DNA from: Mycolicibacterium malmesburyense
GTDB lineage: Bacteria > Actinomycetota > Actinomycetes > Mycobacteriales > Mycobacteriaceae
Length of the DNA stretch: 20,146 bases
Direction: 5' to 3'
Assembly (NCBI RefSeq): GCF_001050015.1
Contig: NZ_CVTB01000301.1
Span: forward strand, 1 to 20,146
The notes beneath the pieces are model-generated. The model was not told the origin of the DNA. It searched no databases and was given only the letters and a program-made list of their open reading frames with translations. The translations under genes and the position numbers were made by a program. Shown in pieces: positions 9,532 through 16,317 of the stretch (position 1 is its first letter; the number at the start of each line of letters is the position of its first letter).

Positions 9532-10383
9532 TCACAGTGAGCGGACCGTCCCGAACAGATGCGGCTCGCGCTTCTTCATGTCGCGCAACGTCAGATCCCA
9601 GCCGTCGGACACCCGGTCGACGTAGAGGCCCGCGCTGGCGGGCAGCACCACCGGCTTGGCGAACTTCACCGAGTACTTGACCGCGTCCGGCAGCTGGCCC
9701 TCGATGTTCGCCAGAACCGCTGCCGCGGAGAACATTCCGTGCGCGATGACGGTCGGGAACCCGAACAGCTTGGCCGCGATCGGATTGGTGTGGATCGGGT
9801 TGTGGTCGCCACCCACCGAGGCATAGTGCCGGATCTGGCCCGGGGTGATGCGCAGCATCGCATTCGGCGGGCCGAGTTTCGGCGGCTTCTGCGGCGGCGG
9901 CTTCGGCTCGTCGGACAGGCTCGTGCGCTGCTGGTGCAGGAACGTGGTGATCTGATGCCACGCCTGCTCATTGCCGACGCTGACGTCGGTGACGATGTCG
10001 ACCAGCAGGCCCCGCCGGTGCTCACGCAGGTTCTCCGCGTGCACCTTGACCGAGACGGAGTCGGTGACCGCGATCGGACGGTACTGCGTGATGTGGTTCT
10101 CGATGTGCACCGAACCCATTGCCGCGAACGGGAAGTCGAAGCCGGTGACCAACGACATCAGCGTGGGGAACGTCAGCGCGAACGGATACGTCAGCGGAAC
10201 GGTGTCGCCGAACCGCAACCCCGTCACCGCCGCGTAGGCCGCCACGTTTCCCGGATCGATGCTCAGATCCTCGACGCTCAGCGTGCGGTCGGGCAACGTC
10301 TCGCCGCGCGGCACGAACGGCAGGGCGCCCGCCGCCGCGCGCGCCAGGTTCATCAGCCCGGACGGTTGACTCGCACCTGTCAT
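9532..10383 (-). CDS. htdX: (R)-specific enoyl-thioester hydratase HtdX (MaoC family)
   Basis: A 283-residue double hot-dog MaoC-type dehydratase/hydratase that interconverts (R)-3-hydroxyacyl and trans-2-enoyl thioesters. The hydratase-2 motif YASVGGDHNPIHTNPIAAKLFG starts at about residue 187, with catalytic D193 and H198 and conserved N195. The length matches M. tuberculosis Rv0241c (280 aa). ATG 10383 has a strong ribosome-binding site GAAGGAG at 10397-10391 with a 7-nt spacer. It is second in the fabG4-htdX operon, 69 nt behind fabG4. With FabG4 it supplies the hydration and keto-reduction steps of an acyl-CoA cycle through the R isomer; the direction in vivo is not visible from sequence. 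Confidence 0.92.
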   Translation of the reverse strand: MTGASQPSGLMNLARAAAGALPFVPRGETLPDRTLSVEDLSIDPGNVAAYAAVTGLRFGDTVPLTYPFALTFPTLMSLVTGFDFPFAAMGSVHIENHITQYRPIAVTDSVSVKVHAENLREHRRGLLVDIVTDVSVGNEQAWHQITTFLHQQRTSLSDEPKPPPQKPPKLGPPNAMLRITPGQIRHYASVGGDHNPIHTNPIAAKLFGFPTVIAHGMFSAAAVLANIEGQLPDAVKYSVKFAKPVVLPASAGLYVDRVSDGWDLTLRDMKKREPHLFGTVRSL

Positions 10384-10403
10384 GCCTCGACTCCTTCTCG
10401 TTC

Positions 10404-10436
10404 CGGTCCTCGCTCGTTCCTCGCTGCGATCCTCAC
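10404..10436 (-). repeat. Three tandem GYGAGGAHCG units between fabG4 and htdX
   Basis: Reading on the minus strand, GTGAGGATCG (10436-10427), GCGAGGAACG (10424-10415) and GCGAGGACCG (10413-10404) follow each other with spacers of 2 and 1 nt. They lie in the fabG4-htdX intercistronic mRNA upstream of the htdX ribosome-binding site. Each unit contains an AGGA that could mimic a weak Shine-Dalgarno core. Confidence 0.6.
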
Positions 10437-10452
10437 TCGTCGTCGCCTTCGG

Positions 10453-14399: not shown

Positions 14400-14408
14400 G
14401 TGTCCGTC

Positions 14409-14451
14409 CAACAAAAACGCCCCCGGGAAGAGACCGGGGGCGTTCTTGTTG
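14409..14451. terminator. Bidirectional intrinsic terminator of fadE5 (and sRNA side)
   Basis: An inverted repeat with a CGCCCCCGG/CCGGGGGCG core (14418-14426, 14434-14442), a 7-nt loop, AA/TT, one A-C mismatch and then CAACAA/TTGTTG. On the minus strand the GC core is followed by TTTTTGTTGG, a good U-tract, 19 nt beyond the fadE5 stop. It would also catch read-through from the sRNA side. Confidence 0.88.
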
Positions 14452-14469
14452 CGAAGCGGCAGAAGAGGC

Positions 14470-16317
14470 TTAGAAGGCCGCCTCGTCCAGTTCCATCACC
14501 TCGTTGTCGAGGTTCTCGATGATCTGACGCGTGCTGGTCAGCATCGGCAGGAAGTTCTTCGCGAAGAACGACGCCACCGCGACCTTGCCCTCGTAGAAGG
14601 ACCGGTCGTCGGCTGTCGAACCAGCACCGACACCGGCATCGAGCTTGTCGATGGCCACCGCGGCGTGCTGCTGCAGCAGCCAGCCGATGACCAGATCGCC
14701 GACGCTCATCAGGAAGCGCACCGAGCCCAGGCCGACCTTGTACAGCTCGGTCGGGTTCTCCTGCGCCGCCATCAGATAGCCGGTGAGCGACGCGGCCATG
14801 GCCTGCACGTCCTCCAGGGCGGTGGCCAGCAGCGCACGCTCGGCCTTGAGCCGGCCGTTGCCCGACTCGTTCTTGACAAACTGCTCGATCTGCCCGGCCA
14901 CGTGGGCCAGCGCCGCACCCTTGTCGCGGACGATCTTGCGGAAGAAGAAGTCCTGCGCCTGGATGGCGGTGGTGCCCTCGTAGAGCGAGTCGATCTTGGC
15001 GTCGCGGATGTACTGCTCGATCGGGTAGTCCTGCAGGAAGCCGGAACCACCCAGGGTCTGCAGGCTCTCGGTGAGCTTGGCGTAGGCCTGCTCGGAGCCG
15101 ACGCCCTTGACGATCGGCAGCAACAGGTCGTTGACCCGGGCCGCCAACTCGGCGTCCACATCGTGCACGGCCTTGGCCACCGGGGCGTCCTGGTATGTCG
15201 CCGTGTAGAGGTACAGCGCACGCAGACCCTCGGCGTAGGCCTTCTGGGTCATCAGCGAACGACGCACGTCGGGGTGGTGCGTGATGGTGACGCGCGGGGC
15301 CGTCTTGTCGGTCATCTGCGTCATGTCGGCGCCCTGCACACGCTCCTTGGCGTACTCGAGAGCGTTGAGGTAGCCGGTCGACAGCGTGGCGATCGCCTTG
15401 GTGCCCACCATCATTCGGGCCTGCTCAATGACGTCGAACATCTGCGCGATGCCGTCGTGTACCTCGCCGACCAGCCAGCCGACGGCGGGGGTGCCGTGTT
15501 GACCCAGCGAGAGCTCACAGGTGGCCGAGACCTTCAGGCCCATCTTGTGCTCGACGTTGGTGACGAAGACACCGTTGCGCTCGCCGGGCTCACCGGTCTC
15601 CGGATCGAAGTGGAACTTCGGCACGAAGAACAGCGACAGACCCTTGGTGCCCGGGCCTGCGCCCTCGGGGCGGGCCAGCACCAGGTGCATGATGTTCTCG
15701 AACAGGTCGTCGGAATCACCCGAGGTGATGAAGCGCTTGACGCCGTCGATGTGCCAGGTGCCGTCGGGCTGCTGCACGGCCTTGGTGCGGCCGGCGCCGA
15801 CGTCGGAGCCCGCGTCGGGCTCGGTCAGCACCATGGTGGCGCCCCAATTGCGCTCGGCGGCCAGCACGGCCCACTTCTTCTGCTCGTCGGTGCCGTTGTT
15901 GTAGAAGATCTCGCACATGCCCGCGCCCATCGCGTACATGTAGGCCGCGGGGTTGGCGCCGAGAACGTGCTCGATCAGCGCCCACTGCAGCGCGCGGGGC
16001 ATCGGCATACCGCCGAGTTCCTCGGCGAGGCCGACCTTGTCCCAGCCGCCCTCGAGCAGCGCGCGCATCGACTTCTTGAACGAGTCGGGCAGCGTCACCG
16101 CGTGGGTGTTGGGGTCGAATGTGGGGGGATTGCGGTCCGCGTCGGCGAACGACTCGGCGATCGGGCCCTCAGCCAACCGGGCGATCTCGCCGAGCATCTC
16201 GCGGGCGGTGTCGACGTCCAGATCGGAGTAGTCGCCCTCGCCCAGCGCCTTGTCAACGCCGAAGACCTCGAACAGGTTGAATACCTGGTCACGAACGTTG
16301 CTCTTATAGTGGCTCAC
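14470..16317 (-). CDS. fadE5: Acyl-CoA dehydrogenase FadE5
   Basis: A 615-residue flavin-dependent acyl-CoA dehydrogenase of the long, AidB/ACAD-like mycobacterial type (M. tuberculosis Rv0244c is about 611 aa). Characterised FadE5 proteins accept a broad range of chain lengths. It oxidises acyl-CoA to trans-2-enoyl-CoA. Seen here are TEPDAGSDVGAG (165-176) for FAD and substrate, HKMGLKVSATCEL (257-269), TLGGSGFLQDYPIEQYIRDAKI (421-442) and the catalytic base Glu447 in LYEGTTAIQAQDF. GTG 16317 has a strong AGGAGGA just upstream (16327-16321). The promoter carries TTGAGT (16417-16412), a 16-bp spacer and TATAGT (16395-16390), overlapped by two operator palindromes. Divergent from the dehydrogenase gene; ends at a strong terminator. 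Confidence 0.95.
   Translation of the reverse strand: MSHYKSNVRDQVFNLFEVFGVDKALGEGDYSDLDVDTAREMLGEIARLAEGPIAESFADADRNPPTFDPNTHAVTLPDSFKKSMRALLEGGWDKVGLAEELGGMPMPRALQWALIEHVLGANPAAYMYAMGAGMCEIFYNNGTDEQKKWAVLAAERNWGATMVLTEPDAGSDVGAGRTKAVQQPDGTWHIDGVKRFITSGDSDDLFENIMHLVLARPEGAGPGTKGLSLFFVPKFHFDPETGEPGERNGVFVTNVEHKMGLKVSATCELSLGQHGTPAVGWLVGEVHDGIAQMFDVIEQARMMVGTKAIATLSTGYLNALEYAKERVQGADMTQMTDKTAPRVTITHHPDVRRSLMTQKAYAEGLRALYLYTATYQDAPVAKAVHDVDAELAARVNDLLLPIVKGVGSEQAYAKLTESLQTLGGSGFLQDYPIEQYIRDAKIDSLYEGTTAIQAQDFFFRKIVRDKGAALAHVAGQIEQFVKNESGNGRLKAERALLATALEDVQAMAASLTGYLMAAQENPTELYKVGLGSVRFLMSVGDLVIGWLLQQHAAVAIDKLDAGVGAGSTADDRSFYEGKVAVASFFAKNFLPMLTSTRQIIENLDNEVMELDEAAF

What the first reader, a model, noticed from the sequence alone, without database searches (positions are those of the whole stretch)
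9532..16317. Complete four-step acyl-CoA cycle under one apparent operator
FadE5, HtdX, FabG4 and FadA2 supply dehydrogenase, (R)-hydratase, ketoreductase and thiolase. Their promoters share TTAC-N6-GTAA: one copy serves fabG4-htdX and fadA2, two copies serve fadE5. Enzymes of one cycle under one palindrome suggest a dedicated regulon for an R-stereochemistry beta-oxidation or reverse-elongation pathway, separate from the classic FadB route.
Basis: partly seen in the sequence, partly recalled or inferred. Interest (0 to 1): 0.7.

Follow-up and report, generated by a model that had tools for sequence, protein, structure and literature searches.

The report
Fatty-acid breakdown switch in mycobacteria
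The shared DNA palindrome is real and old, but it is best read as the binding site of FdmR, an already described repressor of fatty-acid breakdown, and not as the mark of a separate, dedicated pathway.

Summary
TTAC-N6-GTAA lies between fabG4 and fadA2 (11816-11829) and upstream of fadE5 (16368-16381); a second fadE5 copy (16393-16406) is one base off. In 80 named records the exact site lies upstream of fadA2 in 77 of 80 and of fadE5 in 51 of the 52 loci with enough upstream DNA. The enzymes are FadE5, HtdX, FabG4 and FadA2. The best regulator is the TetR gene beside them (8872-9501): its own promoter has the exact site in 11 of 14 loci of other genera, though in only 8 of 49 mycobacterial ones. 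By neighbourhood it is Rv0238 = FdmR, a published acyl-CoA-responsive repressor that controls fadE5 (PMC12403877, PMC9262360; primary paper not held). The 'dedicated R-cycle' reading fails: the operator also sits on etfB, desA3, etfD and, more weakly, malate synthase. No exact copy lies upstream of fadB (0 of 17; one had only 45 nt), so 'apart from FadB' survives at the DNA level. Possibly new: etfD carries a tandem operator in 11 of 11 genomes outside one clade (M. gastri, szulgai, asiaticum) and in 0 of 6 inside it.

The parts
8872..9501 (+). TetR-family regulator, the likely FdmR ortholog (Rv0238 type)
   Evidence: PF00440 + PF21943; nearest NCBIfam model is FasR, far below its cut-off; a match in 19 of 19 same-genus genomes at 74-97% identity and in 63 of 80 named loci; 3f1b matches at 4e-73
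8859..8872 (.). Degenerate operator at the regulator's own start (TTACCCTGGTGGAA)
   Evidence: 1 mismatch; exact at the same place in L023, L025, L092 and G014
9532..10383 (-). htdX, MaoC-type hydratase; (R)-specificity from the known family, not tested
   Evidence: 4oob/3wew HtdX at about 1e-135; hydratase motif YASVGGDHNPIH at residues 187-198
10453..11805 (-). fabG4, 3-oxoacyl reductase
   Evidence: NF006110 over cut-off; FabG4 structure 5vp5 and near-identical hits at about 1e-237; YAATK in the translation
11816..11829 (.). Operator shared by fabG4-htdX and fadA2 (TTACTCCAGAGTAA)
   Evidence: exact; 77 of 80 named records on the fadA2 side, 78 of 79 on the fabG4 side; conserved flanks AAC..G
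11840..11845 (+). -10-like TACTAT for fadA2; would give a leaderless transcript near 11852 (inference)
   Evidence: conserved TAnTAT-like columns downstream of the operator
11852..13150 (+). fadA2, 3-ketoacyl-CoA thiolase
   Evidence: 7xly FadA2 at 5.7e-239; NF006740 over cut-off; Cys93 and Cys419 motifs
14470..16317 (-). fadE5, acyl-CoA dehydrogenase
   Evidence: 6kse FadE5 and related entries, E = 0
16368..16381 (.). Proximal fadE5 operator, at about the predicted transcription start
   Evidence: exact; 51 of 52 loci
16393..16406 (.). Distal fadE5 operator, one base off where it runs into the -10 hexamer (GGTATAGT)
   Evidence: second copy in 30 of 52 loci, 27 of the 30 ending GTAT
16390..16417 (-). 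fadE5 core promoter TTGAGT-N16-TATAGT, overlapped by the distal operator
   Evidence: the only sigma-70-type match in 8700-16700, 0.5 expected; TATAGT in 27 of 52 rows, the window included

Best explanation
TTAC(C/T)-N4-(A/G)GTAA, often as AAGTTAC-N6-GTAACTT, is the operator of the TetR repressor FdmR encoded at 8872-9501. FdmR sits on the fadE5 promoter (between -35 and -10 and at about +1) and on the divergent fabG4/fadA2 promoter, and holds both down. Long-chain acyl-CoA releases it, so FadE5, HtdX, FabG4 and FadA2 are made when fatty acids are plentiful. The same operator couples the electron carriers for FadE (EtfBA and, outside one clade, EtfD) and the desaturase DesA3. Shown here: operators, their conservation, their targets, the promoter overlap and the site in the regulator's own promoter in other genera. 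From papers: FdmR = Rv0238, its acyl-CoA response and its control of fadE5. Inferred: that this TetR is the FdmR ortholog and binds these exact sites; steric repression.
For: Site conserved at fadA2 (77 of 80), fabG4 (78 of 79) and fadE5 (51 of 52). Exact site in the TetR's own promoter in 19 of 63 loci: 8 of 49 in Mycobacteriaceae and 11 of 14 in other genera; with one mismatch allowed 32 of 63. An FdmR-like gene is found in 19 of 19 same-genus genomes. In G023 and G030 an FdmR-like gene (44% and 42%) sits near fadA2 with sites at both promoters. Targets form one physiology: in same-genus genomes etfB exact in 18 of 19, desA3 13 of 19, etfD 11 of 17, while 11 permuted control palindromes gave no exact hit at these three. 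GTTACYNNNNRGTAAC: 98 places in 31 genomes against 2 for the reversed pattern. Corynebacterium oculi (L099) has fadA2 but no site and no TetR match in the held stretch. Papers, passages read: FdmR = Rv0238, long-chain acyl-CoA-responsive repressor (PMC12403877); key regulator of fadE5 (PMC9262360). FadE5, ETF and EtfD work in one electron chain in M. smegmatis (PMC13083937, passages).
Against: In the window the TetR's own site is degenerate, and the own-promoter site is exact in only 8 of 49 mycobacterial loci and 2 of 19 same-genus genomes. 17 of 80 named loci have no TetR match in the held stretch although nearly all keep the fadA2 site; the gene may lie outside the stretch. G020 has the sites (fadA2, a FadE5-like gene and others) but no FdmR match at E <= 1e-20; a different TetR (PF19344) flanks its fadA2 operator. 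No binding data were available; the primary FdmR paper is not held. Orthology to Rv0238 rests on neighbourhood and published gene numbers; no Rv0238 sequence was compared.
Confidence: 0.86

Rival explanations
1. One reading: a dedicated regulon for one R-stereochemistry beta-oxidation or reverse-elongation cycle.
For: All four enzymes lie under the operator; HtdX has the hydratase-2-type motif; 0 of 17 same-genus fadB loci have an exact site upstream.
Against: The operator also marks etfB (18 of 19), desA3 (13 of 19), etfD (11 of 17) and glcB (5 of 19 exact, 12 of 19 with one mismatch), crotonyl-CoA carboxylase/reductase in three order-level genomes, and isocitrate lyase and PEP carboxykinase in one genome each. 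Those are not steps of that cycle.
Confidence: 0.08
2. Another acyl-CoA-sensing TetR (MadR/Rv0472c, FasR/Rv3208) or Rv0681 uses the palindrome.
For: A lipid-catabolism iModulon is assigned to Rv0681 (PMC9044949, passages). The TetR beside fadA2 in G020 is nearer to a family with 33-39% identical members in 18 same-genus genomes (taken as MadR-like from recalled gene neighbourhood) than to FdmR (28%). FasR is FdmR's nearest NCBIfam model, and one G001 site lies about 500 bp upstream of a fatty acid synthase.
Against: The MadR consensus in print is TCTGTG-N7-GT (PMC8872791, passages). None of the 18 MadR-like same-genus loci L379-L396 holds an exact palindrome; 2 hold a one-mismatch copy. FdmR is named as key regulator of fadE5.
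Confidence: 0.08
3. The palindrome is a chance or non-regulatory sequence kept by neighbouring constraint.
For: AT-rich promoters in GC-rich genomes resemble one another; with one mismatch allowed some control palindromes also score in related promoters.
Against: 11 permuted palindromes in the same upstream regions reach exact means of only 0.00 to 0.27 loci, maximum 2; the reversed extended pattern occurs 2 times against 98; the N6 centre varies while the arms stay.
Confidence: 0.01

Closest known systems
FdmR regulon (Rv0238; Dong et al. 2021 PNAS, not held; seen only through citing papers)
   Same: TetR gene in the same neighbourhood; fadE5 as target; fatty-acid degradation and modification genes; repressor responsive to long-chain acyl-CoA
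   Different: Here etfD carries sites in 11 of 17 same-genus genomes, none of them in the M. gastri-szulgai-asiaticum clade; whether the primary paper lists it could not be checked
FadR/YsiA regulon of Bacillus subtilis (recalled; seen only as a reference title)
   Same: TetR repressor of beta-oxidation; NCBIfam FadR model matches the window TetR weakly; etfBA as targets (recalled)
   Different: Below the FadR cut-off (62.8 of 200 bits)
FasR (Rv3208)
   Same: Nearest NCBIfam family; acyl-CoA sensing; binds three inverted repeats (PMC7382501, passages)
   Different: Activator of fas-acpS; the window TetR scores 101 of the 330 bits required
MadR (Rv0472c)
   Same: Acyl-CoA-responsive TetR repressor of lipid genes
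   Different: Different published binding consensus; targets desA1/desA2

Membership tests
FdmR regulon | TetR-family regulator of the Rv0238 type beside htdX-fabG4-fadA2 | tested here: met
   TetR at 8872-9501 next to htdX; TetR match in 63 of the 80 named loci. Equation with Rv0238 is by neighbourhood, not by sequence comparison
FdmR regulon | fadE5 and other fatty-acid degradation genes as targets | tested here: met
   Operator at fadE5, fadA2/fabG4, etfB, desA3; fadE5 named as target in PMC9262360
FdmR regulon | Regulator has the operator in its own promoter (not known to be defining) | tested here: inconclusive
   Degenerate in the window; exact in 8 of 49 mycobacterial and 11 of 14 other loci
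FdmR regulon | Release by long-chain acyl-CoA | not testable with these tools
   Statement from PMC12403877 only
FdmR regulon | Physical binding of the regulator to these sites | not testable with these tools
   No binding data; primary paper not held
FasR equivalog (NF053731) | Score over the curated cut-off | tested here: not met
   101.3 of 330 bits
Bacillus FadR equivalog (NF053878) | Score over the curated cut-off | tested here: not met
   62.8 of 200 bits
Dedicated R-specific beta-oxidation regulon | Operator confined to the four cycle enzymes | tested here: not met
   Sites at etfB, desA3, etfD, glcB and others
Dedicated R-specific beta-oxidation regulon | Classic FadB operon outside the regulon | tested here: met
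   0 of 17 exact within 1500 nt upstream of fadB, 1 of 17 with one mismatch; one locus held only 45 nt

The most novel reading that the evidence does not exclude
The operator defines an old, actinobacterial fatty-acid and acetyl-CoA regulon whose membership and even regulator have shifted. In most mycobacterial lineages examined it couples the FadE5 cycle to its whole electron path (EtfBA and EtfD) and, in part, to the glyoxylate shunt. In the M. gastri-szulgai-asiaticum clade EtfD was released from it, and in at least one related lineage (G020) the same operator is kept beside a non-FdmR TetR, that is, operator conserved and regulator exchanged.
Probability: 0.4. Interest if true: 0.55.

Novelty: already known. 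Interest (0 to 1): 0.33.

Why it matters
It gives exact operator coordinates for a known repressor and shows that one palindrome ties the first beta-oxidation enzyme to its electron carriers. The absence of the etfD site in one whole clade is a concrete, testable difference in how mycobacteria wire fatty-acid respiration. A study in a member of that clade would miss it; M. marinum, in which FdmR was described, is placed there from recall and was not checked.

Tried and rejected
Rejected: MadR as the binder (different consensus); chance; a dedicated R-cycle. Led nowhere: literature searches through fadE5/fadA2/fabG4/TetR, Rv0238, palindrome terms, Rv0681, Rv0338c/glcB/fixA and five locus tags did not list the primary FdmR work; FdmR was recalled and then confirmed through citing papers. 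PMC9044949 does not name fadE5 or etf genes in its main text. The acyl-CoA dehydrogenase of L006 carries the site in only 3 of 16 same-genus orthologs, so it is not a core member. Extra extended-pattern sites at a weakly beta-propeller-like protein (L359; look-alikes in L360 and L363 by eye), a STAS protein (L361) and a PE protein (L366) were looked at and not pursued. A protein search with the TetR showed no FdmR name among the 120 listed of 2611; those with names read TetR/AcrR, transcriptional regulator or hypothetical.

Dropped rows: in the fadE5 tally four loci with less than 150 nt upstream (L055, L058, L081, L091) were left out. The tree used 100 of 102 sequences offered and left out G009 and G010; both were added in the FadA2-only tree. 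In one search the match list was cut ('more matches are not listed'); the flanks of 23 chosen sites were read, not of all 98. Control palindromes were run for same-genus loci only, not for the order-level ones.
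Full report
What is there. The window is mycobacterial: FadA2 plus FabG4 are 98% identical to those of Mycobacterium sp. 852002-51961 (L021), on a branch with G001 and G012 and near M. agri. The order is nagZ-like, TetR (8872-9501 +), htdX (9532-10383 -), fabG4 (10453-11805 -), fadA2 (11852-13150 +), an F420-type oxidoreductase (13309-14241 +) and fadE5 (14470-16317 -). HtdX, FabG4, FadA2 and FadE5 match solved structures bearing those names. The HtdX hydratase motif and the thiolase cysteines are present. So the four chemical steps are encoded; direction, stereochemistry and substrate were not tested.

The palindrome. Two exact copies, against none in 100 shuffles, and two one-mismatch copies. 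The single sigma-70-type promoter found between 8700 and 16700 is that of fadE5, TTGAGT-N16-TATAGT. The distal operator lies in its spacer and runs three bases into the -10 hexamer, which would explain its deviating last base (GGTATAGT). The proximal operator begins at about the predicted start of transcription. TATAGT stands at this place in 27 of 52 rows, the window included, and a second operator copy in 30 of 52 relatives, 27 of them ending GTAT. This is the layout expected of a repressor site; repression itself is inferred here.

Conservation. Of 80 named loci, the fadA2 upstream region has the exact site in 77, fabG4 in 78 of 79, fadE5 in 51 of 52. The three fadA2 misses are L069 (the site is found from the fabG4 side), L100 (no fabG4 found in the locus) and L099, Corynebacterium oculi, which also shows no TetR match in the held stretch. 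The one fadE5 miss is L082, with two one-mismatch copies. The site is kept in Gordonia, Rhodococcus, Nocardia, Tsukamurella, Williamsia and one record labelled Kitasatospora, whose FadA2/FabG4 fall among Gordonia, Tsukamurella and Williamsia, so that record may be mislabelled or the locus transferred. The arms and the bases AAC before and G after the site are near-invariant, while the N6 centre varies; that analysis used only rows with an exact site.

Which regulator. An FdmR-like TetR is found in 19 of 19 same-genus genomes at 74-97% identity and in 63 of the 80 named loci; in the other 17 none matched in the held stretch. The TetR's own promoter has the exact site in 11 of 14 loci of other genera and 8 of 49 mycobacterial ones; with one mismatch 13 of 14 and 19 of 49. 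Papers identify FdmR as Rv0238, a long-chain-acyl-CoA-responsive repressor of fatty-acid degradation and modification (PMC12403877, passages), and as key regulator of fadE5 (PMC9262360, passages). Rv0238 is one of five TetR genes conserved in all mycobacteria examined in PMC4482099 (one section read). The window TetR is taken as its ortholog by neighbourhood; the gene numbers Rv0242c and Rv0243 for fabG4 and fadA2 were seen in PMC10699116 (passages). The primary FdmR paper is not held, so I could not check its motif or target list.

How far the regulon goes. The nearest held genome has 20 exact places. Beside the window genes they include etfB, a tandem pair 25 bp apart at the etfD-like Fe-S reductase, malate synthase G, a desaturase taken as desA3, a cholesterol-oxidase-like gene and an acyl-CoA dehydrogenase (gene names etfD, desA3 and choD recalled); others of the 20 lie at genes with no evident tie to lipids. 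Orthologs were then sought in the same 31 genomes and 300 nt upstream scanned. In same-genus genomes, exact / at most one mismatch: fadA2 19/19 of 19; etfB 18/19 of 19; desA3 13/18 of 19; etfD 11/11 of 17; glcB 5/12 of 19; fdmR 2/7 of 19; the L006 dehydrogenase 3/3 of 16; fadB, over 1500 nt, 0/1 of 17 (one fadB locus held 45 nt). Eleven control palindromes gave exact means of 0.00 to 0.27 and at most 2. With one mismatch their means are 0.09 to 2.64, with maxima of 19 at fadA2 (presumably TACT-N6-AGTA, a shifted reading of the same site) and 16 over the long fadB stretch.

Clade difference. The six genomes without the etfD site (G002, G007, G008, G011, G016, G018) all fall in one 20-row clade with M. 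gastri, M. innocens, M. szulgai, M. asiaticum and M. terramassiliense (support 96; 92/89 in the FadA2-only tree). All 11 site-bearing genomes fall outside it; G009 and G010 were missing from the first tree and are placed outside in the second. The named members of the clade were not tested for etfD. All six keep an exact site at etfB and fadA2, and at desA3 2 are exact and 6 within one mismatch. At glcB none of the six is exact and one is within one mismatch, in the ribosome-binding region; but G017 and G004, outside the clade, lack it too, so the glcB pattern is weaker. That the clade consists of slow growers is recalled; G017, next to Mycolicibacter, keeps the etfD pair. One loss event explains the pattern, so 0 of 6 against 11 of 11 is not a set of independent observations. 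In M. tuberculosis etfD responds to iron through IdeR while etfBA does not (PMC8593149, passages), which would fit a release from the fatty-acid operator.

Beyond the genus. In order-level genomes a site within one mismatch lies 300 nt or less upstream of etfB in 8 of 11 loci held (1 exact) and of etfD in 8 of 11 (2 exact) (no control was run there). GTTACYNNNNRGTAAC occurs 98 times in 31 genomes against 2 for its reversal. Flanks of 23 chosen sites include a FadE5-like gene (G020; by eye and Pfam), crotonyl-CoA carboxylase/reductase (G020, G021, G023), isocitrate lyase (G012), PEP carboxykinase (G014), 3-hydroxybutyryl-CoA dehydrogenase (G020), an enoyl-CoA hydratase (G023), an acyl-CoA dehydrogenase (G012), cholesterol-oxidase-like genes (G012, G015; by eye) and a similar number of genes without such a tie. 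G020 has no FdmR match at E <= 1e-20, yet its fadA2 operator lies between fadA2 and another TetR with a PF19344 domain, whose best same-genus relatives show 33-39% identity. This suggests an exchange of regulator on a kept operator, but no binding was shown.

Verdict. Its reading as one dedicated R-stereochemistry cycle is too narrow; the core is the known FdmR regulon. The clade-specific release of etfD and the possible regulator exchange are the parts that may be new. My searches did not show either in print (listings; passages of PMC8593149 and PMC13083937), but the decisive primary paper could not be read.

Noticed in passing
L298-L315, upstream of desA3-like genes: A second imperfect palindrome, TTACGNTANCGTAG-like, lies 30 bp downstream of the FdmR-type site in 17 of 19 same-genus desA3 promoters; its centre differs from the FdmR consensus and may belong to another regulator.
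   Followed up: no
L328:8300-9307 (G020): A PF19344-type TetR is divergent from fadA2 with the operator between them, in a genome without an FdmR match.
   Followed up: partly
L001:1501-1514 (G001): An exact palindrome about 500 bp upstream of a type I fatty acid synthase, the target of the related regulator FasR.
   Followed up: partly
L399, L403, L405: TTACGGTTGCGTAG/TTACGGTTCCGTAA-like sites in the flanks of other TetR genes in order-level relatives.
   Followed up: no
L079: Record labelled Kitasatospora whose FadA2/FabG4 fall among Gordonia, Tsukamurella and Williamsia: mislabelled record or transferred locus.
   Followed up: no
window 13309-14241: An F420-dependent LLM oxidoreductase gene (TIGR03564 over cut-off) lies between fadA2 and fadE5 without a palindrome of its own.
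   Followed up: no
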